The notes under the pieces: model-generated
What the model was told of the DNA's origin: nothing
What the model saw: the letters and a program-made list of their open reading frames with translations, nothing else
The model's database searches: none
Made by a program: the position numbers and the translations under genes
Assembly (NCBI RefSeq): GCF_001895005.1
Contig: NZ_BCXH01000004.1
Coordinates: 345,658 to 409,657, forward strand
Reading direction: 5' to 3'
Length of the DNA: 64,000 nucleotides
From: Rhodococcus yunnanensis NBRC 103083
Lineage (GTDB): Bacteria > Actinomycetota > Actinomycetes > Mycobacteriales > Mycobacteriaceae
Shown: positions 39,831 through 64,000 of the stretch, in pieces
Numbering within the stretch: the first letter of the stretch is position 1
How the letters are laid out: each line of letters begins with the position of its first letter

Positions 39831-40197
39831 ACCGTGGTCTGCGGTGCGCTGGGGCTTTCGAAAACGCGGAGCCGATGTCGCTCGTTCGTTTTGGTCAACG
39901 CTGCCGGGTGACCTGTAGATTGGACCGGTGCTGATTCAGGTTCGGGGACTGGGGGCACTCGTGTTCATGACACGCGTCCGACGAGTCGGTAGTGCCAGGC
40001 GACGGGAGACGACCTACTTCAGATGTAACGACAATGGCCCGTCATGTAGATGTACCGATGGGTAACTTCTATCGGCCCGTGGTCTGCGGTTTCGTGGATA
40101 CGGGAATTTTTCGAATTGATGTATTCGGTGCCCACCGAACAGTCGGTGCAGCTGGCGATCGATGGGGGCGCGTGATTGTGGGAAAGAGAGGATTCGA
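39831..40197 (+). promoter_or_regulatory. NRPS upstream region with candidate promoter
   Basis: This 367-base stretch holds no convincing gene. A candidate promoter is TTGGTC (39891-39896), 19 bases, TAGATT (39916-39921). Six bases later a GTG at 39928 could open a leaderless 45-codon ORF ending at 40065, with a Cys-rich end; it may be a leader peptide or chance. The rest is probably the NRPS 5' leader, including AT-rich sequence near 40105-40125. No IdeR/DmdR iron box (TTAGG-TTAGSCTAACC type) was found by eye. Confidence 0.35.
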
Positions 40198-49100: not shown

Positions 49101-52100
49101 TATGTACCGCACGGGTGACGTCGTGCGGTGGAACCGTGCAGGGGAACTCGAGTACATCGGGCGCAGCGACTCTCAGGTCAAGCTCCGAGGCCTTCGCATC
49201 GAACTCGGCGAGATCGAAGCCGTGCTGCTCGAGAACGCCGACATCGCACAGGCATCGGTGGCGGTGCGCGGCGAGCAGTTGGTCGCCTACGTGGTCACTG
49301 CACCCGACACCGATCTACGCCCGATACGAAACATGTTGGCGCAGAGGCTGGCCGAGTACATGGTCCCGTCGGTGTTCGTGCCGATGGACCGGTTCCCGCT
49401 CGGTGCAACAGGAAAGCTGGATCGCCGCGCCCTTCCCGACCCCGTGCACGTGCAGCGCGAGTACCGCGAACCGGTCACACCGACCGAGCAGACGGTAGCG
49501 CGCGTGTTCGGCGAGGTACTCGACGCGGATGCGATCGGCCTCGACGACGATTTCTTCGAACTCGGTGGAAACTCACTGATCGCAACCCGTGTCGTGACGC
49601 GGCTCGGCGCTGCCCTCGACGCCGAGATCGGCGTTCGTTCGCTGTTCGAAAACCCTTCGGTCGGTGCTCTGGCGCAGGCTCTCACGGAACGAGCAGGTGC
49701 CGGACGACGCAAGCCGTTGGTGCCGCAAGTTCGTCCCGACGTCGTTCCGCTCTCGCTCGCCCAGCAGCGAATGTGGTTCCTCAACCGGTTCGACACGGCA
49801 TCCGGTGTCAACAACATTCCCGTCGCGGTCCGCCTGTCCGGGTTGCTGGATCGGCAGGCGCTCAACATCGCCGTAGCGGACGTGCTGGATCGGCACGAAT
49901 CCCTTCGCACCGTGTACCCCGAGATCGACGGATCCGGGCACCAGGTGGTTCTTCCGACCAGCGAAGTGATCCCGGATCTTTCGCCGATCGAGATTTCCGG
50001 CGACGACATCTTCACTGTTCTCGAAGACGTGGCGACGGCGGGCTTCGACGTCACTGTCGAGTTGCCGCTGCGCGCACGCCTGTTCGAGATCAGCCCGACC
50101 GAGCACATCCTGGTGTTGGTCGTTCATCACATCTCGACCGACGGTTACTCCATGGGTCCGCTCACGCGGGACGTGATGACCGCCTATGTCGCACGGTCCG
50201 AAGGTGCCGAACCGAACTGGACAGCTCTTCCGGTGCAGTACGCGGACTACAGCCTGTGGCAGCGGGACATGCTGGGACACGAGAGCGATTCGGACTCTCT
50301 GCTCGCCAAGCAACAGGACTACTGGAAGTCCGCTCTGGAATCGATTCCCGCACAACTGGATCTGCCGACGGACCACGCGAGACCTGCGGTCGCATCGAAT
50401 CGCGGCGCAGCTGTGCCGTTCTTCATCGATCAGGCAACGGTGGGCGATCTGACGGATCTGGCGCACCGCAACGGGTCCTCGCTGTTCATGGTGATGCATT
50501 CGGCGTTCGCCGTCCTTCTCTCGCGCTTGTCGGGAAGCGACGACATCGTGATCGGCACTCCTGTCGCCGGGCGCGGCGAGTCGGCGCTCGACAATCTGAT
50601 CGGCATGTTCGTCAACACGCTCGTACTCAGGACCCCCGTCGACGGGCACTCTCGTTTCGACAAGTTCCTCGCACGCAACAGATCCATCGATCTACAGGCT
50701 TTCGCACACGCGGACGTACCGTTCGAACGACTGGTCGAAGTACTCAATCCTGCTCGTTCGCAGGCACGCCATCCGCTGTTCCAGGTCATGCTCTCGTTCC
50801 AGAACATGGAGCGGACCAGCCTGGAACTGCCGGGACTGTCGGTCTCGATGGTGGATTTCGAGACGAAGGGTTCCAAGTTCGACCTGCAGCTGACCATGAG
50901 TCAGACGGTCGACGAACACGGTGCCGACGCAGGTCTGTCCTGCTTGTTCACCTACGCCACCGACCTGTTCGACGAGTCGACAGTAGAGACGCTCGCGGCA
51001 CGGTTCGTACGGGTCCTGCGCGCAGTCAGTGCCGACTCGGCAGTTGTGATCGGCGACATCGACTTTCAGGATGCCGACGAACGCGATCAGCTCGTGCACG
51101 GTGTCAACGACACCGCGCAGGCAGTCGACGGTGCGCACACACTGGTGTCGCTGTTCGACGAACAGGTCGCTCGCACTCCGGATTCGACTGCTCTCGTACT
51201 CGCATCGGAGACCGACGAGCCCCCTCAGGTACTCACCTACGCGGAATTCGATGCCCGAGCGAACGCCCTCGCCCGCTACTTGGCGGGCCGCGGGGTCGGA
51301 CCCGAGTCCACGGTCGCGTTGGTGGCGCGTCGCTCGTTCGAGCTGCTCGTCGGAATGTATGCGATCGTCAAAACCGGTGCCGCCTATGTGCCCATCGACC
51401 CCGATCAACCTGCCGCGCGCAACGAGCACGTCCTCGCGACCGCACTGCCGCTGCTGATCCTGGCGACGCAGGACGTGGCCGATTCGATCACGGCGGACGC
51501 TCCGATCTGTGTGTTCGACCAGCTCGATCTGAGCGAAGTCTCGAGCACTCCGATCACCGATGCCGATCGCACCGCTGCGCTCCGACCGGACAACCCGGCC
51601 TACCTGATCTTCACGTCGGGGTCCACCGGCAGACCCAAGGGTGTGTCGGTCAGCCATCGCGCAATCGTGAACCAGATGCTGTGGGGACGGGATCGCTATC
51701 GCCCGACCGAAGACGACGTCTTGATTCAGCAGACCCCTGCAACCTTCGACGTCTCGGTGTGGGAGTTCTTCTGGGGGTTGGGGAACGGCGCATCACTGGT
51801 TATTGCACCCCCTGACGCGCATCGTGACCCCAGTCGGATCACCCGCATCATCGAGCGGGAACAGGTGACGCTTGCACACTTCGTTCCCTCGGTGCTGTCG
51901 GTGTACGTCGCCGACACCGAGAACGAAGCATGCCGTTCGCTGCGAATGCTGTTCGTTGCCGGTGAGATGCTTCCCCTGCCTACCGTGATTCGGGTTCTTC
52001 GGGTCCTTCCGAACGTGCGACTGCACAACCTGTACGGACCTGCCGAAACCACTGTCTACGTCACCCACCATTCGGCGTCCGGCACCGACATCGAGGCGGT

Positions 52101-55100
52101 GCCGATCGGCGTGCCGTTGTGGAACACGCAGGTCTACGTTCTGGACGAGCGGCTGCACCCCGTGCCAGCGGGTGTCCTCGGAGAACTCTACGTCGGTGGC
52201 GTGCAGCTGGCCCGTGGATACGCGAGCCGGGCCGATCTGACCGCCGAGCGCTTCGTGGCGGATCCCTACGGGGACAACGGGGCTCGTCTCTATCGTACCG
52301 GCGACCTGGTGCGATGGAACGACAGCGACGAGCTGGAATACGTCGGACGGAGCGACTTCCAGGTCAAGCTCCGGGGCCAGCGGATAGAGCTCGGAGAGAT
52401 CGAGTCCAGTCTCCGATCCGCCGGCGAGAACGTCGACGACGCGGTGGTCGTCGTCCATTCGGACGAACGCGCAGGAGACCGGCTCGTTGCCTACGTCGTG
52501 CCGCGTGTCGGCCACGCGATCGACTCGGCAGCTCTTCGTTCCGCCATGAAGGCGTCCCTGCCGTCGTACATGGTGCCGTCGTCGTTCGTCACTCTCGATG
52601 CCTTGCCGCTCAACGCCAGTGGGAAGCTCGACCGTCGCGCTCTGCCGGTCCCCAGCATGGACGTCGCGCTGTTCCGCGCACCTGTGACGCCGATCGAGGA
52701 GATCGTTGCTCAGATCTTCGGTGACGTGCTGGGCGCCGAACGGGTGGGTCTCGACGACGACTTCTTCGAGCTCGGTGGGAACTCATTGGTCGCGATGCAG
52801 CTGGTCTCGCGACTCGGGGCTGCGCTGGACACGCGCGTCGCCGTGCGTGAACTGTTCGAGAGCTCGACCGTCGGTGCATTGGCGACAAGCGTCGAACGCA
52901 AGTCCGGGACCGGTGGGCGCACAGCGCTCGGCCCGCAGGATCGTCCGTCTCTGATCCCGTTGTCCCTTGCGCAGCAACGCATGTGGTTCCTCAACCGCTT
53001 CGACCCGGAGTCCGCCGTCAACAATATTCCCGCGGCGATCAGGCTTACCGGACAGCTCGACGTCGCAGCGCTCACCGCAGCGGTGAGCGATCTCGTGAGC
53101 CGTCACGAATCATTGCGTACCGTTTATCCGGATCACGGCGGTTCCGGCTTCCAGAAAATCCTGGCCTCCGGTGACGTCACGCTCGATGTGGTGCCGAGAG
53201 ATGTCACAGCCGACGAGCTGGCCACGGCCATGTACGACATGGCAGCAACCGGGTTCGACGTCACCAGCAGCGTGCCGTTCCGAACGCGACTGTTCCGCGT
53301 CGGCGACGACGAATACGTGTTGATGTTCGTCGCCCACCACATCGCGGCCGACGGATTTTCGATGACACCGTTGGCGCGCGATGTGATGACCGCGTACGTG
53401 GCGCGGGCGGAAGGTCAGGATCCGACCTGGACGATGCTCGAGGTCCAGTACGCCGACTTCGCCATCTGGCAGCGCGACGTACTGGGATCCGAGTCCGACC
53501 CGGGCTCGCTTCTCGCTCAGCAGGAAATCTATTGGCGTCAGAACTTGGCCGACCTTCCGGACGAGGTCACGCTGCCGTCGGATCGACCACGTGGCGACAC
53601 GGCGTCGGGGCGCGGCGACGTCGTCTCCTTCGCCGTGAGCTCCGATGTCCACCGACGCTTGTCGGAACTCGCGCGCGAGGGCAACGCATCGCTGTTCATG
53701 GTCGTCCACAGTGCGGTGGCTCTGATGCTGGCGCGTATGTCGGCGACGGAGGACATCGTTGTCGGAACACCGATAGCAGGCCGTGGCGACGCGGCCCTCG
53801 ACGACGTGATCGGCATGTTCGTCAACACGCTGGTCCTGCGGACCGACGTGCAGGCTTCGGCAACGTTCGGCGAGTTGCTGGCGAGGTCTCGCGAGGCCGA
53901 TCTGGCTGCATTCGCGCACTCGGACATTCCGTTCGAGCGAGTGGTGGAGGTTCTCGACCCCGAGCGCTCCAGAAGCCGCCATCCCTTGGTCCAGGTACTG
54001 CTCGCGTTCCAGAACATTCGGCGGACCGAGTTCGAATTGCCCGGCCTGACAGTGGCATCGGTCGACGTGCATTCGGCGACGGCGCGGGCTGATCTGCAGT
54101 TGACGGTCACCGAGTCCATCGCGGAGGACGGTGCTCCCGACGGACTGGAGGTCTTCTGGACCTACTCGACGGATCTCTACGATCGACGCACGGTGGAGGA
54201 GTTCGGTGCACGACTGAATCGAGTGTTCGACGCTGTCGTCGACAACCCTCGTGTCGTCGTCGGCGACATCGATCTGCTCGGCGCCGACGAACGAGTCCTG
54301 GTGACGTCGACCTGGGCGGGTGTCGACGGTATCGATGCATCCACTCGAACGCTGGTGGACCTGCTGGACCGACAGGTCGAACAGGCGCCACACTCGACTG
54401 CGGTGGTGTTCGGTGCCGAGCGCGTGAGCTACCTCGAACTCGACGGGCGAGCCAATCGGCTTGCGCGATACTTGATCTCGATCGGTGTCGGACCCGAGTC
54501 GTTGGTTGCCGTCGCGCTGCCACGATCGGTCGAGCTCGTCGTCGCACTGTTGGCTGTGATCAAGTCCGGCGGTGGGTACGTCCCGGTCGACCCGACCAAT
54601 CCGGCGGATCGAATCGCGTACGTCCTGGAGGACGCGGCGCCTGCTGCCCTGGTGACCTGGAAGGGTCGCGAGTTCTCGGTAGCGGATGGCCTGACGTGCG
54701 TCGAAGTCGACGCTGTCGATCTCGGGGACGTCGACTCGGCGACAATCGGCGATGCCGAGCGCATTCGTCGGCTTCGTCCCGAGGACGCTGCCTACGTCAT
54801 CTACACCTCGGGGTCGACGGGACGACCGAAGGGTGTCGTGGTCCCGCACGTAGCCGTGGCGCGTCTGATGGCGAACACCGACGGTCTGTTCGAGTTCGAC
54901 TCCGGCGACGTGTGGACACTGTTCCACTCGTACGCATTCGACTTCTCGGTGTGGGAGCTGTGGGGACCGCTACTGCACGGCGGCACGCTCGTGGTGGTCG
55001 ACTACTTCACGTCGCGGTCGCCGGAGTCGTTCCGCGAACTGCTGATTCGGGAGAAGGTCACGGTTCTCAACCAGACTCCCTCGGCGTTCTATCAACTCGC

Positions 55101-58100
55101 CGAAGTGGATCGGGTTGCGCCTGTAGGCGATGCGGAGCTGGAACTGCGCTACGTCGTCTTCGGCGGTGAAGCTCTCGAACTGCGTCGGCTGTCGGATTGG
55201 TTCTCGCGTCACGGTGACCGTGGTCCCGAGCTGGTGAACATGTACGGGATCACCGAGACGACGGTGCACGTATCGCACCGTCGGATAGACAGCGAGTTGG
55301 TCGCGAGCGCGACGGGTTCCGTAGTGGGCGGCGCGATCCCTGGTCTGCGCGTCTACGTGCTCGACTCACGCCTCGAGCCGGTACCGGTCGGGGTCGCCGG
55401 TGAGATGTACGTCGCCGGTGGCACGTTGGCTCGTGGATATCTCGGACGTACGGAGTTGACGGCCACTCGTTTCGTCGCGAACCCGTTCTCGGGTACGCAT
55501 GCGCATCGCGGCGGTTCGCTGATGTACCGCACCGGTGACGTCGCGCGTCGAACCGCAGACGGCGATCTCGAATTCGTCGGTCGTGCCGACGATCAGGTGA
55601 AGATCCGGGGCTTCCGGATCGAGCTCGGCGAGATCGAAACTGCCGTATTGGAACAGAATTCGGTCGGTCAGGTCGCAGTGGTGGTCCGGGCCGACCGCCA
55701 TGACGCGCATCAGCTGGTGGCCTACGTCGTGCCTGCCTCGGGCGCCACTGCGGATCTGTCGGATATTCGGGCCGGAGTTGCCGCCCTGCTACCTGACTAC
55801 ATGGTCCCGTCGGCGTTCGTCGTCGTGCCGCAGATTCCGTTGACGGTGAACGGAAAGCTGGACCGTCGCGCATTGCCCGAACCGGTCTTCGAGATTCGAG
55901 AGTTCCGTGCACCGACCACCCCGTTCGAGGAGATCGTCGCGGAGGTCTTCGCCGACCTGCTCGGCGTCGAACGGATCGGTGTCGACGACGACTTCTTCGA
56001 ACTCGGCGGTAACTCGTTGATCGCGACTCGTGTGGTGTCGCGTATCGGTGCAGCGGCCGACGCCGTGGTTCCCGTGCGGGCCTTGTTCGAGGCGCGCACT
56101 GTCGCGAAGCTGGCCGTCGAGGTCGAACGCTCCGGTGGTGCCGGTCGCGTAGCTCTTGTTGCACGGGAGCGGCCGACGGAGATTCCGTTGTCGCTGTCGC
56201 AGCGGCGAATGTGGTTCCTGAACCGGTTCGATCCCACATCGACGGCGTACCTCGTGCCGATTGCGCTCCGCCTGTCCGGAGACTTGGACGTCTCGGCACT
56301 CGGGGCGGCGGTGGCCGATCTGATGTCGCGTCACGAGTCGCTGCGGACGGTGTATCCGGAGACCGAGAACGGGCCGGTGCAGGTCATTCTGCATCCTTCG
56401 CAGGCTGTTCCCGAACTGACGGTCACCGAGGTCGCGCCGGACGCTGTTGCCGAACAGATCGCGTCGCTCGCAGCCACACAGTTCGATGTCACGACGGACG
56501 TTCCGATTCGAATCGAGCTCTACCGGACCGATGCCACGGAGCACGTGCTCGCCATGGTTGCGCATCACATCAGCGTCGACGGTGTGTCGGTCGGGCCCTT
56601 GGCGCGCGATCTGATGACTGCCTACGCCGCGCGGACTGCGGGTGCCGATCCGGGTTGGGTTCCGCTACCTGTGCAGTACGCGGACTTCAGTCTCTGGCAG
56701 CGGGACATGCTCGGATCCGAGTCCGACGAGGATTCGACGGCAGCGCGCCAAATCGGTTTCTGGACCGAGACATTGGCGGGTCTCCCGGACGAGCTCGCGC
56801 TTCCCTCCGACCGTCCGCGGCCGGCGGCACAGTCGTTCGCCGGGGCGAGCGTCGAGTTCGACATCGATCCGGAACTGCACCGACGTCTGCGCGATCTGGC
56901 GCGGGCGCAGGGTGGCACGCTGTTCATGGCTGTGCACGCGGCGTTCGCGGGACTGCTCTCGCGGATGTCCGGAACGGAAGACATCGTCGTGGGTACGCCG
57001 ATCGCCGGTCGCGGTGACCGCGCATTGGACGACTTGATCGGAATGTTCGTCAACACTCTCGTGCTGCGCACCCAGGTGGACGGATCGATGCCCTTCACCG
57101 CTCTCGTCGACCGTGCCCGCGAGACAGATTTCGCCGCCTTTGCGAACGCGGACGTGCCGTTCGAGCGACTGGTGGAGGTCATCAACCCCGTTCGCTCGAC
57201 AGCTCGGCATCCGTTGTTCCAAGTCGGATTCTCGTTCCAGAACCACGGTGTCACCGATCTGGCACTTCCCGGTCTCGACATCGCTGCGGTGGAGGTCGAA
57301 TCCGGTGTCGCGCAGTTCGATCTGCACCTGATCGTGGTGGATCGCTACGACGAGAGCGGGTCACCCGCAGGCATGGCTGCGGAGTTCACGTACGCGAAGG
57401 ACCTGTTCGACCACGCAACCGTCGGCTCGATCGCCCAGCGTTTCGTGCGGTTGCTCGAATTCGTCGTCGATCGACCCGACGTGCCGATCGGCGATGTCGA
57501 CGTACTCGACACGGTCGAGCAGACACTCGTCGTCGAATCGTGGAACCAGACGGCTCACCCGGTGAACCGTGAGGCCACGTTGGTCTCGCTGTTCGACGCT
57601 CGAGTCACCGCCCAGCCCGACGCGACTGCGTTGGTCGACGGCGCCGACCGCCTCACGTTCCTTGAATTCGATTCGCGGATAAACCGATTGGCGCGTTACC
57701 TGATCTCCCGCGATGTCGGACCGGAAACTCTGGTGGCGCTGGCGATTCGTCGTAGCGCCGATCTGGTCGTCGCGATGTTCGCGGTCGCGAAAGCGGGTGG
57801 CGCCTACGTGCCGCTCGATCCCGATCAGCCACGGGAGAGGATCGACTACATCCTGGGGACCGCCAGGTCGGTACTGCTGCTGACGACGTCGAACGACGGC
57901 TCCGGATTCTCGGAGCACCCGGTCCCGGATCTTCCGACGACGTACGTCGACGATCTCGATCTGTCCTCGTATGAGGACTCGCCGATCACCGACGTCGAGC
58001 GGTTGTCCTCGCTCGGTGCCGCCAACTGTGCCTACGTCATCTTCACCTCGGGATCGACAGGTAGGCCCAAGGGCATCGCCGTGAGCCACGCCGCGATCGT

Positions 58101-61059
58101 CAACCAGCTGACCTGGAAGAGCACCGAGTTCGACCTCGGACGAGACGATTCCGTGCTGCTCAAGACTGCGGCGACGTTCGACTTGTCGGTGTGGGAGTTC
58201 TGGTCTGCTCCGACGTCGGGTGCAACTCTCGTCATCGCTGGACCGGACGAGCACCGCGATCCTGCGAGGCTGGTGGACATCATCGCGGGCGAGTCGATCA
58301 CCACGCTCCACGTCGTGCCGTCGATGCTGAGCGCACTGATGACGGTCACGGACAACACACTGCCGCCGTCGTTGAAGCGGGTGCTCGCCATCGGTGAGGA
58401 ACTCCCCGGCGATGTCGCACGGCGTTTCGTCGAGCACAACCAGATCGCTCTGTTCAACCTGTACGGTCCGACCGAGGCAGCGGTGTCGGTGACCTCGCAC
58501 CTGGTCCTGCCCGACGAGGGCGCACGTGTTCCGATCGGCAGGCCGGAGTGGAACACCCGGGTCTACGTGCTCGATTCGCGGATGCACCCGGTCCCGGTCG
58601 GAACCACGGGTGAGCTCTATCTGGCCGGAGATCAGTTGGCCCGCGGCTACCTCGGTCGCTCGGATCTGACTGCCGAGCGCTTCGTCGCAGACCCCTTCGA
58701 CTCCGACGGCGGACGGCTGTATCGCTCCGGCGACCTCGCGTCCTGGACCGCAGACGGAGAACTGGTCTTCGCGGGCCGGTCCGACTTCCAGGTCAAGATC
58801 CGAGGTTTCCGGATCGAGCTCGGTGAGATCGAGGCAGCGTTGCGGGCGATGGATGAGCTCGGCGACGCTGCCGTGCTGTCGTATTCGGACCCACACACCG
58901 GTGATCGGCTCGTGGGCTATCTGGTTTCCGCCGAATCCGCGTCGGTCGACATCGATGCGGTGCGAACAGCATTGAACTCGGCCCTGCCGTCGTACATGGT
59001 GCCGTCCCACTTCGTCGTACTGTCGTCGCTGCCGCTCAACGCCAACGGCAAGCTCGATCGTGCCGCGCTGCCCGCCCCGGTCTTCGAATCGACGGAATTC
59101 CGAGCTCCGACCGATCCGATCGAAGAAATCGTGGCGCGCGTGTTTTCCGAGCTTCTCGGCGTACCTCGGGTCGGTCTGGACGACGACTTCTTCGCCCTTG
59201 GCGGCAATTCGCTGGTCGCGACTCAGCTCGTCGCTCGTCTCGGTGCTGCACTGAATGCGCCGATCTCGGTCCGTGCGGTGTTCGAGGCGCCGACGGTCGG
59301 TGCCCTCGCCGCCCGTGTGGAATCGAACGTGGGACAGGGTGCCCGCGCGCCGCTCGTGGCGCGGCCCCGACCGGACGTCGTACCGCTGTCGTTGGCGCAG
59401 CAGAGGATGTGGACGCTCAACCAGTTCGACAGCACGTCCGATGCCTACAACATTCCGGTGGCCATCAGGCTGACCGGGTCGTTGGACGTCGCCGCGCTGC
59501 GAGCGGCGGTGGGCGACCTGTTCCGGCGGCACGAGATTCTGCGGACTCGGTACCCCGATACCGCGGACGGCCCCGTCCAGTCGGTTGTGCCGCTCGAGGA
59601 GGCGCAGCCGCCTCTCGAGTTGCGTGACATCTCGGCGGCGGACGTACTGGCTGCAGTCGGGGACGTCGTGACCGAAGGCTTCGACGTTGCGGCGCAGGTC
59701 CCGGTCCGCGCGGAGCTGTACCGCATCACCGAGTCCGGCGATTCCGAGTTCGTCCTGGTCCTGGTTGCCCATCACATCAGCGCCGACGGATTCTCCATGC
59801 GTCCGCTGATCAGAGATGTCATGACCGCTTATGTCGCGCGCACGGCCGGCGATGCGCCCTCGTGGGCCGAATTGCCCGTGCAGTACGCCGATTACTCGCT
59901 GTGGCAGAGGGAAGTACTCGGATCCGAGAGCGACCCGGACAGCGTGCTGGCCAAGCAGATCGCGTTCTGGTCGGACACGCTCTCCGGTGCACCCGAGCAG
60001 ATCGGGTTGCCGACGGACTTTCCTCGGCCGGCCAGAGCGTCGATGCGCGGTGGCCGGATGGAGTTCACGGTCGCATCCGACATCGCCGCGCGTGTGCAGA
60101 AGACTGCACGCGAGCACAGCGCGACGGTCTTCATGGTGGTGCACAGTGCCCTGGCGGTCTTGCTGTCCAAGTTGAGCGGTGAGCAGGACATCACCATCGG
60201 TACTCCGGTTGCCGGCCGTGGTGATGCAGCCCTCGACGATCTCGTCGGCATGTTCGTCAACACGCTGGTACTGAGAACATCGGTTCCGCCGAGTGCAACG
60301 TTCGCCGACCTGTTGGCCGGAGTAAGAGAGAAGGATCTGGCCGCGTTCGGCAACGCCGACGTCCCGTTCGAGCGGGTCGTCGAGGTGGTCGGACACAAGC
60401 GTTCGGCGGCCTTCAGCCCGCTGTTCCAGGTCATGCTGACATTCCAGAATCTCGCCTCCGGCACCTTCGCGTTGCCCGAATTGGAAGTGTCGGCTCTCGA
60501 CAGCGGCCTCGAGCAGGCAAAGGTGGATCTACAGCTGACCGCTGTCGAGCGCTTCGACGATTCCGGCGAGCTCGTCGGAATCGACGCCGTGTTCAACTAC
60601 GCGACGTCGTTGTTCGAGCCGGCGACGGTCGACCTGTTCGCGCAGCGCTTCGTCCGCCTTCTCGATCTCCTGACGTCCGATCCCGACAGCATCGTTCGTG
60701 CCGTGGACATGCGTTCCGAGTCCGAGCGAGTGGTGCCTGCAGCCAAGCCGAAGACGATCGACGACCTGCCCGAGTTGGTGGCGGCCGCAGCGACGGTTGC
60801 TGGATCCTCCGTTGCGTTGTCGCACGACGGCACGAGCGTCACGTTCGGAGAACTCGACGAGAAACTGTCGGCGGTCTCCAGATCGACCGGCGGTGCACTG
60901 AAACCAGAAGCGGTGTTGTCGGTGGCACTGACAGGTCTTCTCCCGGGGATTCTGCCCGCTCTCGGCGCGGACGGCTTTGCGGCAACGGTTGCCACCTTGA
61001 TTCGCGACGCCCAGGACCTGGCTGCTCCGCCGGGAGGAGCCGGTGCCCCCATGCAGTGA
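40198..61059 (+). CDS. Giant non-ribosomal peptide synthetase, six modules plus C domain
   Basis: A 6,953-residue NRPS. The start is TTG 40198 behind GAGAGG (40186-40191, six-base gap); ATG 40162 is in frame but lacks a ribosome site. Order: C1 from 40264 (HHVVLDG), A1 41620, T1 Ser codon 43237; C2 43411, A2 44797, T2 46402; C3 46573, A3 47965, T3 49573; C4 49744, A4 51136, T4 52783; C5 52954, A5 54349, T5 56014; C6 56182, A6 57571, T6 59209; C7 59380; then an A-domain N-terminal relic 60743-61056. Codes read by eye against EntF (Lys517 assumed): A3 DVWHFSLVDK is Ser, A5 DFWNVGMVHK is Thr; A1 DVWDFILVSK, A2 DPLISGAIVK, A4 DVWHFALVYK and A6 DLWHLILVSK are not assigned. C1 looks EntF-like (aryl or acyl cap). 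No epimerase or thioesterase domain is present. Confidence 0.93.
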   Translation: MDPLGFDGSADSESAGPGVPESSFPLSPAQLGMWFAQHVDPSVPANIAQYVELRGDLDTDLLRRTSSTAAMEMQSGFVRIVEVDAEPRQFVDSSLDDPLGYVDLRGEADPDRAAHEWMRAAYSAPIDILRDRLIAATVLHLDEDRYFWFNRVHHVVLDGFGAVTFMNRVAELYTAAVEKIEPKPNQSSDLSKVYEIDVAYRESSRFVTDKQYWSERIAGIEETTSLAGRSAAPAPISQIDSVALGEGTVAGFDELTTATESTMATVVIAAFASYMAQMTGREDVVLSLPVTARTTAVLRRSGGMVSNVVPLRLTVAADTTIEQLLTKVTTEVSGALRHQRYRHEDIRRDAGGTSGQASFFGPWVNIMLFFSEVRLGEMVGGINILSTGLIEDFGLNLYQSVGGSKTHIDFESNPNLYSSDESARNHDRFVEFLDTFVAAEPGSRVWDLDVSTRAERAAVLGTFNATDHPVEQRTLLTDFHARVDVDPDSVALVYEGTALTYGELGNRVSGLARQLIAKGVGTETLVGLSIRRSIDLIVAMYAIVEAGGAWVPIDPDHPAERTAYILDSASPLCVLVSSHDAVDLPDGTDVLEVDRLDYDALDSARVSDADRLGALRLDNTAYVIYTSGSTGRPKGVAVTHEAIDNQLQWMAAEYALDASDVYLQKTATTFDVSLWGFFLPLQVGATMVLATPDGHRDPVYVADKIAEHRVTVTDFVPSMLTVFVANAPAGSCDSLRHVFVIGEALPAETAAAFRVLGDAGLHNLYGPTEAAVSVTYYPSGPADVRTVPIGVPEWNTKAFVLDGTLRPAPIGQAGELYLAGVQLARGYVGRPDLTSDRFVANPFSASGERMYRTGDLVKWRADGNIDYIGRTDFQVKFRGQRIELGEIETVLLAHENISQAVTLVVATATGDQLVSYVVAAPGRAVDPSDTTEFASHALPSYMVPAAVMVLDALPLNTSGKLDRSALPEPVFTSAREYRAPHSRAEYVVAGVFEDVLGATRVGLDEDFFELGGNSLIATQLVTRVGSALGIRLGVRELFEAPTVGALAARAEIAIEHGSSGPELVAGVRPEVLPLSLAQQRMWFLNRFDPDTAAYNLPFMVRLTGRVDVHALSRAFADVVTRHESLRTVYPQVDDAPRQVILSPDDAFTGLTAVGVDEGSLTRKLVELAREGFDVSAAPPFRIELFELSGTEYVLAMVLHHIAADGSSFGPLARDIMVAYEARSNGRAPGWAPLRIQYADYALWQRRMLGVETDSASLSAQQIDFWLRALDELPDQLDLPSDRPRPAVATNGGAKSRFVIAPRVHRGLSDVARSHQASLFMVVQAAYAVLLSRLSGTTDIAIGAPIAGRAHEELDDIIGMFVNTLVLRAKVEPGDSFDELLDQVRNTNLSAFAHADIPFERLVEVLNPPRSTARHPLFQVALSLEKARHSDLSFAGLRATADELDVPIAKFDLQLWLTEHHDESGAPDRIEATFEYATDLFDAATVEGFADRFLKILDAIVTDASVPLGAIDILTPDELAQLTTVHGGPVSSPRTLPEFLAAGVAANPDGVAVYANGDELTYRDIDDITNRYARYLIGRGVGPETVVALAFPRSVEMVVSMWAVAKTGAAWVPVDPEYPVDRVRHMLSDSGALVGVTSSARVDELPDTCEWWAIDDHAFESSVEGSSGEPITDADRRAPIRLDNAAYVIYTSGSTGLPKGVSVTHRGLSGLVDQSRELYRVTVESRFLHVISPSFDPSVLEWALTASAGATLVVVPPAIIGGPELHRLFADAGVTHAIITPAVLGSMDPAGLDALELLSVGGEASAPDLVSRWARGRRFFNAYGPTETTIVSTRGELFAGEVITVGGPVPGVGAVILDTRLQPVPVGVAGELYLSGEATARGYYRRHGLTSERFVADPFGAPGSRMYRTGDVVRWTKEFAIEYVGRSDFQVKVRGFRIELGEIDAALESFPAVGFAATLGHEMQSGHTALVSYVHGSAEIDKDELLRHVSALLPSYMVPSVLMVLDEVPLTPIGKLDRRALPAPEVGISFRQFRAPTTPIEETVATVFSDVLGAPVVGLDDDFFELGGNSLIATQVVARLGAALDAQVPVRAIFESPTVAQLAIRVEQEAGRGARVALGRSVRPERIPLSLAQQRMWFLNRFDTESATYNLPIALRLSGALDVPALQVAILDVIDRHESLRTLFPDSADGPHQVVQDAAQIVPNLMPIDTTVAELQRAIAHLASTGFDVTADVPVRARLFEISPTEHVLTIVVHHISADGWSLSPLARDIMIAYAARTAWEPPAWSPLAVQYADYSVWQRSILGSEDDPASLISSQVDYWADVLAGLPDQLDLPTDRSRPSRQSYKGSSVRFEVSADLHRQLSMLAHANNASLFMVVHGALAVLLARLSGTSDIAVGTPVAGRGDAALDDLVGMFVNTLVLRTEVDTSLSFTEQIGRAREVALGAFSHADLPFERLVEVLNPARSQARHPLFQVMLSFENLARTHVELPGLSVDSVALDTEVAKFDLQLNVTESIGPDGRGQGMSAEFTYAIDLFDAETAQSFAFRFVRVLEAVVADSSVAVGDIDLLHTGERERVVSTWNGTSREIASDVTLVDLFDRQVARTPDATALVYEGEVLTYSEFDARANRLARHLISIGIGPDTLVGLAIGRSMELLVGMYAIVKAGAGYVPIDPTQPAERNEYIVFTASPVCVLSTTRDHPNLATVDVLDVDSLDLGGYSSDPVTQQHRVSPLRAQNTAYVIFTSGSTGRPKGVSVSHAAIVNRLLWMQHEYPIGADDVVLQKTPSTFDVSVWEFFWALQNGASITIAIPDGHRDAAYLLELIQRRRVSVAHFVPSMLSVFVPEVEVRRDAGSSLRLVFASGEALAPTTAQSLRRALPRVALHNLYGPTEAAVDVTYHPVSDVDTVVMPIGVPVWNTSVFVLDARLLPVPIGVAGELYLAGDQLARGYVGRPDLSADRFVADPFAQSGSRMYRTGDVVRWNRAGELEYIGRSDSQVKLRGLRIELGEIEAVLLENADIAQASVAVRGEQLVAYVVTAPDTDLRPIRNMLAQRLAEYMVPSVFVPMDRFPLGATGKLDRRALPDPVHVQREYREPVTPTEQTVARVFGEVLDADAIGLDDDFFELGGNSLIATRVVTRLGAALDAEIGVRSLFENPSVGALAQALTERAGAGRRKPLVPQVRPDVVPLSLAQQRMWFLNRFDTASGVNNIPVAVRLSGLLDRQALNIAVADVLDRHESLRTVYPEIDGSGHQVVLPTSEVIPDLSPIEISGDDIFTVLEDVATAGFDVTVELPLRARLFEISPTEHILVLVVHHISTDGYSMGPLTRDVMTAYVARSEGAEPNWTALPVQYADYSLWQRDMLGHESDSDSLLAKQQDYWKSALESIPAQLDLPTDHARPAVASNRGAAVPFFIDQATVGDLTDLAHRNGSSLFMVMHSAFAVLLSRLSGSDDIVIGTPVAGRGESALDNLIGMFVNTLVLRTPVDGHSRFDKFLARNRSIDLQAFAHADVPFERLVEVLNPARSQARHPLFQVMLSFQNMERTSLELPGLSVSMVDFETKGSKFDLQLTMSQTVDEHGADAGLSCLFTYATDLFDESTVETLAARFVRVLRAVSADSAVVIGDIDFQDADERDQLVHGVNDTAQAVDGAHTLVSLFDEQVARTPDSTALVLASETDEPPQVLTYAEFDARANALARYLAGRGVGPESTVALVARRSFELLVGMYAIVKTGAAYVPIDPDQPAARNEHVLATALPLLILATQDVADSITADAPICVFDQLDLSEVSSTPITDADRTAALRPDNPAYLIFTSGSTGRPKGVSVSHRAIVNQMLWGRDRYRPTEDDVLIQQTPATFDVSVWEFFWGLGNGASLVIAPPDAHRDPSRITRIIEREQVTLAHFVPSVLSVYVADTENEACRSLRMLFVAGEMLPLPTVIRVLRVLPNVRLHNLYGPAETTVYVTHHSASGTDIEAVPIGVPLWNTQVYVLDERLHPVPAGVLGELYVGGVQLARGYASRADLTAERFVADPYGDNGARLYRTGDLVRWNDSDELEYVGRSDFQVKLRGQRIELGEIESSLRSAGENVDDAVVVVHSDERAGDRLVAYVVPRVGHAIDSAALRSAMKASLPSYMVPSSFVTLDALPLNASGKLDRRALPVPSMDVALFRAPVTPIEEIVAQIFGDVLGAERVGLDDDFFELGGNSLVAMQLVSRLGAALDTRVAVRELFESSTVGALATSVERKSGTGGRTALGPQDRPSLIPLSLAQQRMWFLNRFDPESAVNNIPAAIRLTGQLDVAALTAAVSDLVSRHESLRTVYPDHGGSGFQKILASGDVTLDVVPRDVTADELATAMYDMAATGFDVTSSVPFRTRLFRVGDDEYVLMFVAHHIAADGFSMTPLARDVMTAYVARAEGQDPTWTMLEVQYADFAIWQRDVLGSESDPGSLLAQQEIYWRQNLADLPDEVTLPSDRPRGDTASGRGDVVSFAVSSDVHRRLSELAREGNASLFMVVHSAVALMLARMSATEDIVVGTPIAGRGDAALDDVIGMFVNTLVLRTDVQASATFGELLARSREADLAAFAHSDIPFERVVEVLDPERSRSRHPLVQVLLAFQNIRRTEFELPGLTVASVDVHSATARADLQLTVTESIAEDGAPDGLEVFWTYSTDLYDRRTVEEFGARLNRVFDAVVDNPRVVVGDIDLLGADERVLVTSTWAGVDGIDASTRTLVDLLDRQVEQAPHSTAVVFGAERVSYLELDGRANRLARYLISIGVGPESLVAVALPRSVELVVALLAVIKSGGGYVPVDPTNPADRIAYVLEDAAPAALVTWKGREFSVADGLTCVEVDAVDLGDVDSATIGDAERIRRLRPEDAAYVIYTSGSTGRPKGVVVPHVAVARLMANTDGLFEFDSGDVWTLFHSYAFDFSVWELWGPLLHGGTLVVVDYFTSRSPESFRELLIREKVTVLNQTPSAFYQLAEVDRVAPVGDAELELRYVVFGGEALELRRLSDWFSRHGDRGPELVNMYGITETTVHVSHRRIDSELVASATGSVVGGAIPGLRVYVLDSRLEPVPVGVAGEMYVAGGTLARGYLGRTELTATRFVANPFSGTHAHRGGSLMYRTGDVARRTADGDLEFVGRADDQVKIRGFRIELGEIETAVLEQNSVGQVAVVVRADRHDAHQLVAYVVPASGATADLSDIRAGVAALLPDYMVPSAFVVVPQIPLTVNGKLDRRALPEPVFEIREFRAPTTPFEEIVAEVFADLLGVERIGVDDDFFELGGNSLIATRVVSRIGAAADAVVPVRALFEARTVAKLAVEVERSGGAGRVALVARERPTEIPLSLSQRRMWFLNRFDPTSTAYLVPIALRLSGDLDVSALGAAVADLMSRHESLRTVYPETENGPVQVILHPSQAVPELTVTEVAPDAVAEQIASLAATQFDVTTDVPIRIELYRTDATEHVLAMVAHHISVDGVSVGPLARDLMTAYAARTAGADPGWVPLPVQYADFSLWQRDMLGSESDEDSTAARQIGFWTETLAGLPDELALPSDRPRPAAQSFAGASVEFDIDPELHRRLRDLARAQGGTLFMAVHAAFAGLLSRMSGTEDIVVGTPIAGRGDRALDDLIGMFVNTLVLRTQVDGSMPFTALVDRARETDFAAFANADVPFERLVEVINPVRSTARHPLFQVGFSFQNHGVTDLALPGLDIAAVEVESGVAQFDLHLIVVDRYDESGSPAGMAAEFTYAKDLFDHATVGSIAQRFVRLLEFVVDRPDVPIGDVDVLDTVEQTLVVESWNQTAHPVNREATLVSLFDARVTAQPDATALVDGADRLTFLEFDSRINRLARYLISRDVGPETLVALAIRRSADLVVAMFAVAKAGGAYVPLDPDQPRERIDYILGTARSVLLLTTSNDGSGFSEHPVPDLPTTYVDDLDLSSYEDSPITDVERLSSLGAANCAYVIFTSGSTGRPKGIAVSHAAIVNQLTWKSTEFDLGRDDSVLLKTAATFDLSVWEFWSAPTSGATLVIAGPDEHRDPARLVDIIAGESITTLHVVPSMLSALMTVTDNTLPPSLKRVLAIGEELPGDVARRFVEHNQIALFNLYGPTEAAVSVTSHLVLPDEGARVPIGRPEWNTRVYVLDSRMHPVPVGTTGELYLAGDQLARGYLGRSDLTAERFVADPFDSDGGRLYRSGDLASWTADGELVFAGRSDFQVKIRGFRIELGEIEAALRAMDELGDAAVLSYSDPHTGDRLVGYLVSAESASVDIDAVRTALNSALPSYMVPSHFVVLSSLPLNANGKLDRAALPAPVFESTEFRAPTDPIEEIVARVFSELLGVPRVGLDDDFFALGGNSLVATQLVARLGAALNAPISVRAVFEAPTVGALAARVESNVGQGARAPLVARPRPDVVPLSLAQQRMWTLNQFDSTSDAYNIPVAIRLTGSLDVAALRAAVGDLFRRHEILRTRYPDTADGPVQSVVPLEEAQPPLELRDISAADVLAAVGDVVTEGFDVAAQVPVRAELYRITESGDSEFVLVLVAHHISADGFSMRPLIRDVMTAYVARTAGDAPSWAELPVQYADYSLWQREVLGSESDPDSVLAKQIAFWSDTLSGAPEQIGLPTDFPRPARASMRGGRMEFTVASDIAARVQKTAREHSATVFMVVHSALAVLLSKLSGEQDITIGTPVAGRGDAALDDLVGMFVNTLVLRTSVPPSATFADLLAGVREKDLAAFGNADVPFERVVEVVGHKRSAAFSPLFQVMLTFQNLASGTFALPELEVSALDSGLEQAKVDLQLTAVERFDDSGELVGIDAVFNYATSLFEPATVDLFAQRFVRLLDLLTSDPDSIVRAVDMRSESERVVPAAKPKTIDDLPELVAAAATVAGSSVALSHDGTSVTFGELDEKLSAVSRSTGGALKPEAVLSVALTGLLPGILPALGADGFAATVATLIRDAQDLAAPPGGAGAPMQ

Positions 61060-61132
61060 CCGACATGCGTCCGATCGTGAACTTGGAGTCGAAGCCGGTT
61101 TGTGTCGCATCGTTTCGTAGGGTGTCTCGTGT

Positions 61133-61153
61133 ACGCGTGCGTCTCGCATACGT
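61133..61153 (+). promoter_or_regulatory. Imperfect hairpin between the two NRPS genes
   Basis: ACGCGTGCG (61133-61141) and CGCATACGT (61145-61153) can pair as RNA at eight of nine positions (one G-U) over a three-base loop, in the 141-base gap between the synthetase genes. CGTAGGG and GCATCGT each occur twice around it. It has no T-run and could be a processing or attenuation element. The following ribosome site AGGAGG is at 61186-61191. Confidence 0.3.
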
Positions 61154-61200
61154 AGGGCATCGTGACGCGCGCAGCGGCGGTTAGTAGGAGGAACAGTCAG

Positions 61201-64000
61201 ATGTCGAATGGTCGGCCGAACACTCGGAGCCAGAGCGCTGCCGGCAGCGTTGCCGTGGACGAACTTCCTTCAGTGATAGCTGCCGTCGTCGCAGCTGCGC
61301 CCGATCGCATCGCGTTGACTCACGGTGAGACTGCGGTGAGTTACACGACGTTGTCCACCGAACTGGCTGCTCTGGAGGCAGCCATGGGCGGCGCGCTGGG
61401 GACCGAGGCGCTCGTCACCGTCGTGCTGTCCAACCTGCTTCCCGGTGCACTCGAATCCGGCGGACTCGCGGCCATCGTCGACTCGATCGCCGCCGACGCG
61501 TCCGAGCTGTTGGGGGACGTGGCACCCGCCGGTTCTCCGACGCTGGTCTCCCGCTTCGAGGACCAGGTCGCACGCACCCCCGACGCGACCGCGATCGAGT
61601 TCGAGGGCACAGCTCTGACCTACGCAGAATTCGATGCCCGAGCCAATCGGCTCGCCCGTCACCTCGTGGGCAGGGGAGTCGGCCCGGAGTCCCTCGTCGG
61701 GCTCGGTATCCGTCGGTCGCTCGATCTTCTCGTCGGAATGTACGCGATCGTCAAAACTGGTGCGGCCTACGTTCCGCTCGACCCCGATCACCCTGCGGAC
61801 CGGCTCGCCTACGTTCTCGACGTTGCACAACCGGCCGCCGTACTCGCCCTGTCCACGGAACCTCTCGACCTGCCGGCAGGAACCGGCGTCGTCGAGATCG
61901 ACACGCTCGACCTCGACGATGTCGACGCGACGGCCTTGTCCGACGAAGACCGGGTGCGGTCGCTGACCGACGATGCCGTGGCCTACGTGATCTTCACCTC
62001 CGGATCCACCGGACGTCCCAAGGGCGTTGCGGTGTCGCACCGAGCAATCGTCAGCAACGTGCAGTGGCGTCAGGACGAGTACGCGCTGACGACGGACGAT
62101 GTGGTGCTGCAGAAGACGCCGTTCACCTTCGACGTGTCGGTGTGGGAATTCTTCTGGCCGTTGCAGGTCGGTGCGCGCCTCGTCATCGCCGCACACGACG
62201 GTCACCGCGACCCCGCTTACCTCGCCCGCGTCATGACCGAGCGCGAGGTGACCGTCGCGCACTTCGTGCCGTCGATGCTTGCGGTGTTCGTAGCCGAACC
62301 CTCGGTCCGCGATATCACGACCTTGCGGTACGTCTTCGCCTCGGGCGAAGCGCTTCCCGCCCAGACCACCACTCGGTTTCACACCATCAGCTCGGCCGAA
62401 CTCCACAACCTGTACGGCCCCACCGAGGCCGCCGTCGACGTCACTTACTACGCGACCGAGGCCGCGGAAACCGGTTCGGTTCCGATCGGTCGGGCTGTGG
62501 CCGACACACAGTTGTACGTGTTGGACGACGCCCTACGGACCGTGCCTGTCGGAGTCGAGGGAGAGCTGTATCTCGCGGGTATCCAACTTGCCCGCGGGTA
62601 CGTGGCGCGACCTGACTTGACAGCCGATCGTTTCGTGGCCGATCCGTTCGACGCAGGCCGGCAGATGTACCGTACGGGCGATCTCGTCCGGTGGGTGCAG
62701 CGCGGCGACGTCGAGATGTTGGAATACGTGGGGCGCACCGACTTCCAGGTCAAGCTACGCGGATTGCGCATCGAGCTCGGTGAGATCGAGACGGCCGTGC
62801 TGGAGCACACGTCGGTCTCGCAGGCCGTGGCACTGGTGCATTCCGACGACACGCTCGGTGACGTCCTTGTCGCCTATGTCGTCCCCGCACTCGGCGCGAC
62901 GATCGAGCAGCAGGATCTGGCCGACGCGGTGGGATCGCGTCTACCCGAATACATGATCCCAGGGCTGTTCGTCGCTGTCGACGAATTTCCGCTCGGTTCC
63001 AGTGGAAAGCTGGACCGCAAAGCCCTGCCCGCGCCGGACTTCTCGTCGCTTGCGAGCGAATACCGCGAGCCGTCCACCGACTCGGAGCGTGCGATAGCAG
63101 AGGTGTTCCAGGAGGTCCTCGGGTCCGACACCATCGGTGTCGACGACGACTTCTTCGCAATCGGCGGCAACTCGCTGATCGCCACACGCGTGATCTCGCG
63201 CATCAATGCGCGATTCGCCATCCGTGTCGATGTTCGCGACTTCTTCGATGCGCCGACGGTAGCGGGTCTCGCGGTGATCGTCGACGACGCGATCGACGTC
63301 GGCGCCGGTGGATTGGCACCTCTTGTCCCACAGGAGCGTCCGGAGATTGTTCCGTTGTCGTTGGCGCAGCAGCGGATGTGGTTCTTGAACCGGTTCGATA
63401 CGGCGTCTGCGGTGAACAATATTCCGGTGGCGATCCGGTTGACGGGTGAGCTGGACGTGCCCGCGCTCGAGTCGGCCATCCGCGACGTCCTGGCCCGTCA
63501 CGAGTCGGTGCGCACGATGTACCCCGAAATCGACGGTGTGGGATCCCAATTGGTGCTCGACGTGGATGCCGTGGCGCCCACGCTGACGGCGGAGCCGGTG
63601 TCGGAGTCGGATGTTCTCGCGCGCGTGGTCGAGTTCGTGTCTGTTGGTTTCGATGTGACGGCGGAGGTGCCGTTTCGGGCTCGGTTGTTCGAGGTTGTGG
63701 GTGTTGGTTCTGAGTTCGTGGTGGTGTTCGTGGTGCATCATATTGCGGCTGATGGTTTTTCGATGGGGCCGTTGACGCGGGATGTGATGGGTGCGTATGT
63801 GGCTCGGGCTGGGGGTGGGGAGCCGGGGTGGGCTCCGTTGCCGGTGCAGTATGCGGATTTTGCGTTGTGGCAGCGTGGGGTGTTGGGGTCGGAGTCTGAG
63901 TCGGGTTCGTTGTTGTCGGAGCAGGTGGCGTTTTGGCGGTCGGCGTTGGCGGGGTTGCCGGAGCAGTTGGATTTGCCGTCCGATCGTGCGCGTCCGGTTG
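61201..64000 (+). CDS. Second NRPS, starts with A domain, incomplete at window end
   Basis: At least 933 residues; the frame stays open to the window end. ATG 61201 follows AGGAGG (nine-base gap). Residues 19 to about 103 are an A-domain N-terminal relic homologous to the tail of the preceding NRPS. A full A domain follows from about 61534 (core TSGSTGRPKG; code DVWHFSLVDK, so Ser), then a T domain with the pantetheine Ser codon at 63172 (IGGNSL), then a C domain from about 63345 (HHIAADG) cut by the window end. There is no C domain before the A domain, so module 7 is completed by C7 of the first NRPS. Codon use changes sharply within the last C domain. Confidence 0.93.
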   Translation, partial: MSNGRPNTRSQSAAGSVAVDELPSVIAAVVAAAPDRIALTHGETAVSYTTLSTELAALEAAMGGALGTEALVTVVLSNLLPGALESGGLAAIVDSIAADASELLGDVAPAGSPTLVSRFEDQVARTPDATAIEFEGTALTYAEFDARANRLARHLVGRGVGPESLVGLGIRRSLDLLVGMYAIVKTGAAYVPLDPDHPADRLAYVLDVAQPAAVLALSTEPLDLPAGTGVVEIDTLDLDDVDATALSDEDRVRSLTDDAVAYVIFTSGSTGRPKGVAVSHRAIVSNVQWRQDEYALTTDDVVLQKTPFTFDVSVWEFFWPLQVGARLVIAAHDGHRDPAYLARVMTEREVTVAHFVPSMLAVFVAEPSVRDITTLRYVFASGEALPAQTTTRFHTISSAELHNLYGPTEAAVDVTYYATEAAETGSVPIGRAVADTQLYVLDDALRTVPVGVEGELYLAGIQLARGYVARPDLTADRFVADPFDAGRQMYRTGDLVRWVQRGDVEMLEYVGRTDFQVKLRGLRIELGEIETAVLEHTSVSQAVALVHSDDTLGDVLVAYVVPALGATIEQQDLADAVGSRLPEYMIPGLFVAVDEFPLGSSGKLDRKALPAPDFSSLASEYREPSTDSERAIAEVFQEVLGSDTIGVDDDFFAIGGNSLIATRVISRINARFAIRVDVRDFFDAPTVAGLAVIVDDAIDVGAGGLAPLVPQERPEIVPLSLAQQRMWFLNRFDTASAVNNIPVAIRLTGELDVPALESAIRDVLARHESVRTMYPEIDGVGSQLVLDVDAVAPTLTAEPVSESDVLARVVEFVSVGFDVTAEVPFRARLFEVVGVGSEFVVVFVVHHIAADGFSMGPLTRDVMGAYVARAGGGEPGWAPLPVQYADFALWQRGVLGSESESGSLLSEQVAFWRSALAGLPEQLDLPSDRARPV

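What the first reader, a model, noticed from the sequence alone, without database searches (positions are those of the whole stretch)
59380..63240. Module 7 of the NRPS is split between C and A, with homologous A-domain relics on both partner ends
The first NRPS ends with a lone C domain followed by about 100 residues that look like the first part of an A domain (…VALSHDGTSVTFGELDEKL…). The second NRPS begins with a homologous stretch (…IALTHGETAVSYTTLSTEL…) before its complete A domain. My hand alignment gives roughly 40 percent identity over about 65 positions, including shared GGAL-x2-EA and LLPG. Neither relic has the A3 core, so neither can adenylate. Matched relics at the exact protein-protein junction suggest a docking pair derived from a duplicated A-domain N-terminus, unlike the known short helical COM/docking domains.
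Basis: partly seen in the sequence, partly recalled or inferred. Interest (0 to 1): 0.75.

Follow-up and report, generated by a model that had tools for sequence, protein, structure and literature searches.

The report
Docking pair built from A-domain pieces
Two giant peptide-making enzymes of a Rhodococcus carry, on the two ends that would have to meet, a pair of small conserved domains related to the start of their own adenylation domains, and these likely clip the two proteins together so that one shared module can work.

Summary
NRPS1 ends in a lone C domain plus a ~100-aa domain (R1); NRPS2 starts with a homologous ~95-aa domain (R2) before its A domain (39% identity over 98 aa). They are not decaying relics: both are under purifying selection (dN/dS 0.10-0.20), and the same R1 | R2 arrangement lies at a gene junction in 30 of 37 genomes of the genus. 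In a protein database R1 sits at the extreme C-terminus in 54 of 54 hits, R2 at the N-terminus in 11 of 11. About two thirds of R matches A-domain starts; the last third is a predicted helical hairpin of its own. R1 and R2 carry opposite conserved charges at one column. Best reading: a docking pair for a module split between C and A, a junction type that the review sections and papers seen here do not describe. Against a pure docking role: some single-chain synthetases carry R inside two of their C-A linkers, and one genome has a synthetase of nearly the same layout split at the first of these, with R on both sides. Binding is untested; the only pair model rests on three sequences and is inconclusive.

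The parts
40162..61059 (+). NRPS1: six C-A-T modules, then a seventh C domain and R1
   Evidence: ORF and motif map
59371..60666 (+). C domain of split module 7 (HHISADG intact; borders approximate)
   Evidence: AF2 model of C-R1 matches solved C domains; motif
60754..61056 (+). R1, C-terminal A-related domain of NRPS1 (core 60754-61026)
60862..60864 (+). Lys at column 36 of R1 (K/R in 26 of 26 R1 representatives counted)
60904..61023 (+). predicted helical hairpin (last two helices) of R1, the part shared with R2 but not aligned with A domains
   Evidence: secondary structure of model; A-domain alignments end near position 63
61186..61193 (+). AGGAGGAA, likely ribosome-binding site of NRPS2
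   Evidence: read
61201..64000 (+). NRPS2 (cut by the end of the contig)
61249..61545 (+). R2, N-terminal A-related domain of NRPS2 (core 61255-61521)
61360..61362 (+). Glu at column 36 of R2 (E/D in 27 of 30 R2 representatives counted)
61555..62601 (+). A domain (AMP-binding) of module 7, complete
   Evidence: Pfam
63091..63273 (+). T domain of module 7
   Evidence: Pfam PP-binding

Best explanation
R1 at the C-terminus of NRPS1 and R2 at the N-terminus of NRPS2 are homologous mini-domains related to the start of A domains, and they likely bind each other as a docking heterodimer that would bring the C domain of NRPS1 next to the A-T half of module 7 on NRPS2. Shown: position at the junction, homology to each other and to A-domain N-termini, purifying selection, class-specific conserved residues. 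Predicted: R folds as helix, beta-hairpin, helix, followed by two further helices. Inferred: the A-like part may keep the contact that an A domain would make with C (on R1) or with the following A (on R2); the helical hairpin that the two share beyond the A-like part, with the Lys/Glu contrast at column 36, makes the partner-specific contact; specificity keeps NRPS1 from meeting the other A-starting subunits of the line, in which no R was found. Single-chain C-R-A linkers would then be either the precursor of a split or the scar of a fusion at such a junction.
For: Terminal position without exception in the split form: 44 of 44 loci (in one, L044, the frames are broken in the record), R1 1-14 residues from the C-terminus in 54 of 54 database proteins, the window's own among them, R2 from residue 12-13 in 11 of 11. 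Junction in 30 of 37 genomes of the genus (each read), also in other genera of the family. R absent from the 6 in-chain C-A linkers of the same NRPS1. R1 and R2 resolve as two groups (27 of 29 and 33 of 35 rows; 86/91 for R1, 98/95 for R2). Class-specific charges: column 36 K/R 26 of 26 in R1, E/D 27 of 30 in R2; column 49 K 26 of 26 in R1; columns 67 and 84 acidic in 28 and 29 of 30 R2. dN/dS 0.10-0.20. A second R | R split, in another synthetase of G284, falls in a separate clade with internal R of single-chain relatives (96/92). R1-R2 distances correlate beyond C and A (partial r 0.30, 0 of 2000 permutations as high; C-A given R1 and R2: -0.21). In G342, probably a Nocardia, R1 and R2 are on different contigs, both away from contig ends, so the pair is kept without adjacency. 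R1 modelled with pLDDT 84-96 in blocks of ten.
Against: No measured or confidently predicted contact: the pair model has pTM 0.42 and mean pLDDT 61 with three rows, and does not decide. R occurs inside single chains, where no docking is needed. The partial correlation is modest, and R1-A given C and R2 is 0.25, almost as high. The K/E contrast is absent in the second pair of G284 (both Arg there; sequences). Nine of the 30 genomes hold a second R2-like domain but one R1, so one-to-one pairing is not general. dN/dS of R1 is up to about twice that of its C domain, and synonymous sites are near saturation.
Confidence: 0.7

Rival explanations
1. R is a structural cap or spacer of the C-A linker that works within its own chain; when such a linker was split by duplication both halves kept a copy, and the two copies do not bind each other.
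For: Internal C-R-A linkers in single-chain synthetases, 6 of 6 internal copies in three chains; the G284 split falls at the first such linker.
Against: R is absent from the ordinary C-A linkers of the same protein (0 of 6 in NRPS1); R1 and R2 have diverged into classes with opposite conserved charges; the pair is kept where the genes are on different contigs (G342).
Confidence: 0.15
2. R binds a third partner or self-associates: for example an MbtH-like protein, a free-standing R-like protein, or an R of a second copy of the synthetase, so that it is a dimerisation or recruitment domain rather than an ordered docking pair.
For: G428 has two free-standing R-like ORFs on either side of an MbtH-like ORF, just upstream of a synthetase with two internal R domains; the single chains read carry two R each.
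Against: No free-standing R-like ORF was found near the split pairs in the stretches scanned, which for most loci reach only 1.5 kb; the K/E contrast argues for a hetero- rather than a homotypic contact.
Confidence: 0.1
3. The two stretches are leftovers of a recombination between modules, without function.
For: Relation to A-domain starts.
Against: dN/dS 0.10-0.20 in three clades, in the range of the neighbouring catalytic domains (0.08-0.19); conservation across genera.
Confidence: 0.03

Closest known systems
SLiM / beta-hairpin docking (betaHD, TubC_N) pairs
   Same: N-terminal alpha-beta-beta-alpha-alpha domain at a subunit junction (review PMC9113145, section 15); R is predicted alpha-beta-beta-alpha-alpha-alpha; salt bridges are key there
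   Different: There the upstream partner is a disordered motif under 15 residues and the junction is PCP/C, PCP/Cy or similar; here both partners are homologous ~95-residue domains at a C//A break. No TubC_N match in the window's genome at E <= 10
PAX three-helix docking domains
   Same: dedicated C- and N-terminal pieces, Lys/Glu and Arg/Asp salt bridges (review, section 11)
   Different: one helix against two helices at a PCP/C junction; no relation to a catalytic domain is mentioned
COM domains (helix-hand)
   Same: order NRPS subunits
   Different: E/C junctions, short donor helix, acceptor partly inside the C domain (review, section 11); here the break is C//A
C-A unit of an intact NRPS module
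   Same: R1 has the sequence place of the A-domain start behind C, and its first ~60 residues are homologous to it
   Different: no A3 or any later core; a predicted helical hairpin instead; present on both sides of a chain break

Membership tests
[quoted passage not shown]
   54 of 54 and 11 of 11 database proteins; 44 of 44 loci
NRPS docking domains (in general) | occur as matched pairs at the same junction | tested here: met
   30 of 37 genomes of the genus; the other seven: 3 single-chain, 4 without; 9 of the 30 have an extra R2-like domain
NRPS docking domains (in general) | the two ends bind each other | tested here: inconclusive
   pair model with three rows, pTM 0.42; no wet test possible
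   R inside two C-A linkers of each of three single chains read in full
betaHD (TubC_N) | sequence match to the family model | tested here: not met
   no TubC_N match in the genome at E <= 10 (the 14 control genomes have none over the cut-off either); Pfam scan of R1 and R2 empty at E <= 10
[quoted passage not shown]
   predicted order of elements agrees for the first five; no superposition on a betaHD structure was made
betaHD (TubC_N) | partner is a short disordered C-terminal motif | tested here: not met
   upstream end is a ~95-residue domain modelled with pLDDT 84-96
COM domains | E/C junction with a donor helix behind E | tested here: not met
   junction is C//A; R1 follows a C domain
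PAX three-helix bundle | single N-terminal helix docking into a C-terminal helix pair | tested here: not met
   both ends are predicted as helix, beta-hairpin, helix and two more helices (R2 only in the weak model)
A domain (ANL superfamily) | homology to the N-terminal part | tested here: met
A domain (ANL superfamily) | A3 and later cores (catalysis) | tested here: not met
   domain ends before A3; alignment ends near position 63

The most novel reading that the evidence does not exclude
These synthetases recycle the start of their own A domain into matched docking heterodimers, so that a module can be cut between C and A and still work; the same assembly line orders its later subunits by a second A-derived device, a ~270-residue acidic dead A-domain half on the upstream C-terminus facing a basic leader on the downstream A domain. 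Fusion and fission at the R domain let such lines change between single-chain and split forms.
Probability: 0.45. Interest if true: 0.82.

Novelty: new variant of a known kind. Interest (0 to 1): 0.7.

Why it matters
Docking pairs decide the order of NRPS subunits and are tools for building new assembly lines. The review sections read here describe pairs at E/C, PCP/C and similar junctions; a pair that bridges C//A would show how a module can be cut inside, suggest where a docking domain can come from (a piece of the enzyme's own A domain), and give engineers a cut site at the C-A boundary with a portable, natural connector. The unsplit and split versions of one layout in relatives (G034, G393 against G284) make the idea directly testable.

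Tried and rejected
Family models: the Pfam scan of R1 and R2 was empty at E <= 10; NCBIfam gave one weak hit each, for R2 an acyl-CoA synthetase at E 0.028, which fits the A-domain relation, for R1 an unrelated one at 0.28. Literature: nine paper searches and what I opened showed no A-derived or C//A docking pair. Of the docking review PMC9113145 I read the outline, passages and sections 11 and 15, not the PKS parts; of PMC5550956, PMC13324335 and PMC10127204 only passages; a term search of PMC11433410 found none of four terms; the rest I saw as search listings. Most subscription papers are not in that library. PMC5550956 mentions an unknown NRPS cluster, NRPS-2, conserved in most rhodococci; that it is this line is a guess.

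C-R1 against C-A structures: several two-domain entries align over ranges that run into R1, but only first and last residues are given, so whether R1 sits where an A domain sits could not be judged.

Rows dropped or placed by hand: from the column counts three of 29 R1 representatives (L091, L068, L097) and three of 33 R2 representatives (L097, L098, L044); from the tree L044 and one A-type row. Four rows of genus g24 (L058, L059, L060 as R2, L079 as R1) did not pass the automatic end test and were labelled by hand; start codons lie 8-29 residues before those R2 domains, and in L079 the frame runs 63 residues past R1. 37 of 61 pair loci were kept for after removing copies and short flanks. HMM matches ending before model position 70 were treated as A-domain starts. 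In the scans of the order and phylum only the best 12-13 candidates per genome were scored, so misses are possible. The database search for R1 was by a single sequence and among proteins of 0.55-1.75 times its length; the single-chain synthetases fall in that range but did not appear, so 54 of 54 describes R1-like sequences, not all R domains. The R2 search used a contig-cut 3299-residue piece and thus saw only proteins of about 1800-5800 residues, several of them partial.

Full report
What is there. NRPS1 (40162-61059, 6965 aa) carries six C-A-T modules and a seventh C domain with an intact HHISADG motif; behind it lie ~100 residues, R1, and the stop. NRPS2 most likely begins at ATG 61201, behind AGGAGGAA (read), with R2 and then a complete A domain and T domain; it is cut by the end of the contig, which is also the end of the window.

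R1 and R2 are homologous: 39% identity over 98 positions, E 6e-16, profile against profile 99.6%. In the genome nothing else comes near: after R2 (1.1e-11) the best matches of R1 are A-domain starts, from 5.5e-5. None of the six in-chain C-A linkers of NRPS1 has such a domain.

Relation to A domains. About two thirds of R is homologous to the start of an A domain. A profile of R against the start regions of 55 A domains gives 98.1% probability over 58 columns. Against PDB sequences the profile matches 45, by name all NRPSs or other adenylate-forming enzymes, mostly over positions 5-63. The last third (LLPG and what follows) is shared by R1 and R2 but aligns with no A domain there; that is why the pair is closer to each other than to any A domain. 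AlphaFold2 on C-R1 with 47 rows gives mean pLDDT 88.2, pTM 0.75, and 84-96 per block of ten residues over R1: helix, beta-hairpin, helix, then two helices. In the weaker pair model the R1 half matches adenylate-forming enzymes in the first 15 rows, at modest Z (2.9-5.6).

Distribution and position. In 44 of 44 loci that hold both (several are two records of one species; in L044 the frames are broken in the record), R1 closes the upstream protein and R2 opens the downstream one. In the genus 33 of 37 genomes have R: 30 with an R1 | R2 junction (each read), three with two R in one chain (G005, G015, G034); four have none. Record titles name Rhodococcus and Prescottella. In a sample of 397 genomes of the order 17 match; one (G083) only over the A-like part, the other 16 all in the same family: nine with adjacent pairs, one with the pair on two contigs (G342), five with internal copies, one with a C-terminal copy only (G171). 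In four of the nine (genus g24) the start of the R2 gene was not fixed; start codons lie 8-29 residues ahead. In 396 genomes of the phylum full-length matches occur only in that family. Among 5.8 billion proteins, 54 of 54 hits of R1, the window's own included, have it 1-14 residues from the C-terminus and 11 of 11 hits of R2 have it from residue 12-13; names given by the sources include Rhodococcus, Rhodococcoides, Prescottella and Nocardia.

Not a relic. Median dN/dS in three clades is 0.10-0.20 for R1 and for R2, against 0.08-0.19 for stretches of the flanking C and A domains; R1 is up to about twice its C domain, and synonymous sites are near saturation, so these are rough. R1 and R2 form two groups in the tree, which has few columns, an unsettled bootstrap and a midpoint root. 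At column 36, in the helix behind the hairpin, 26 of 26 R1 representatives have Lys or Arg and 27 of 30 R2 representatives have Glu or Asp; R1 has Lys at column 49 in 26 of 26; R2 is acidic at columns 67 and 84 in 28 and 29 of 30. R1-R2 distances correlate beyond what the adjoining C and A domains explain (partial r 0.30, 0 of 2000 permutations as high, 37 pairs), while C and A given R1 and R2 do not (-0.21); but R1 with A reaches 0.25, so this is weak support.

The single chains. Three synthetases of 11,274-11,944 aa were read in full (G034, G393, G428). Each has two R domains, and all six lie between a C and an A domain. G284 has a synthetase with nearly the same spacing of domains, broken exactly at the first of these places: C-R | stop | R-A. 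Its R domains and the first internal ones of G034, G393 and G424 form one clade, 96/92, apart from the main R1 and R2. So an R on both ends of a C//A break has a second instance, linked by descent to a single R inside an unbroken C-A linker. Whether fission or fusion came first I cannot tell. This speaks against R being only a docking device, and equally against R being an accident: in two separate cases both ends of the break have it.

Mechanism. I hold that R1 and R2 bind each other and bring C next to A-T. What is shown is place, pairing, conservation, homology and the charge contrast; what is predicted is the fold; the binding is inferred. The pair model, with three rows, has pTM 0.42 and decides nothing. 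The hairpin helices are my candidate for the contact because they are what R1 and R2 share beyond the A domain; the beta-hairpin is another, since betaHD docking domains, alpha-beta-beta-alpha-alpha, bind their partner along a strand of theirs (review PMC9113145, section 15). R resembles them in the order of elements only: no TubC_N match in the genome at E <= 10.

The rest of the line. In the single-contig genome G001 and in contig C32 of the window's own genome the later junctions are also C//A, but without R: the upstream protein ends in C plus ~270 residues of an A-domain start without A3 (net charge -21 to -29 in six tails of four genomes, against -7 to -20 in a like stretch of six active A domains of the window), and the downstream protein starts with a basic leader (+4 to +9 over 35 residues in nine) directly before its A domain. 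That C32 continues this line is inferred from the same order in G001. So one line seems to use two kinds of A-related ends. The second kind was not tested further.

Known or new. The review sections and the nine searches showed me no docking pair at a C//A break and none derived from an A domain. I file it as a new variant of a known kind, docking domains, with the binding still to be shown.

Noticed in passing
G000:C32 (L102, L103), G001:C1:906259-956369, G030 and G032: Later subunits of the same line end in C plus a ~270-residue degenerate A-domain start without A3 (acidic), and the next subunits begin with a basic leader and an A domain: a possible second A-derived docking device.
   Followed up: partly
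G003, G004, G010, G021, G026, G028, G030, G032, G033: Nine of the 30 genomes with the pair hold one R1 but two R2-like domains; in G003, G026, G030 and G032 the second was checked to be N-terminal, in the other five not. One upstream and two downstream subunits would make a branched line.
   Followed up: partly
G428:C1:703934-705377 (L091): Two free-standing R-like ORFs (144 and 150 aa) flank an ORF that looks MbtH-like (recalled motif), just upstream of a single-chain synthetase with two internal R domains.
   Followed up: partly
G342:C1:441834-442112 and G342:C10:123803-124072: R1 and R2 lie on different contigs, both away from the contig ends; behind R1 follows an ORF with an A-domain start that breaks off.
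   Followed up: partly
G001:C1:906259-926362; G000:C32:1-12427: Two A-starting subunits follow the same upstream protein; in G001 both end in a stretch that looks like a thioesterase by eye. Two alternative ends of the line?
   Followed up: no
G030:C47:118053-119291 (L094): A 413-residue frame with a secretion-signal-like stretch sits between NRPS genes, behind a subunit that ends in a T domain without thioesterase.
   Followed up: no
window 64000: The window ends where contig C4 ends, inside a C domain of NRPS2; near-identical repeated modules (seen in NRPS2 of G001) may have broken the assembly.
   Followed up: no
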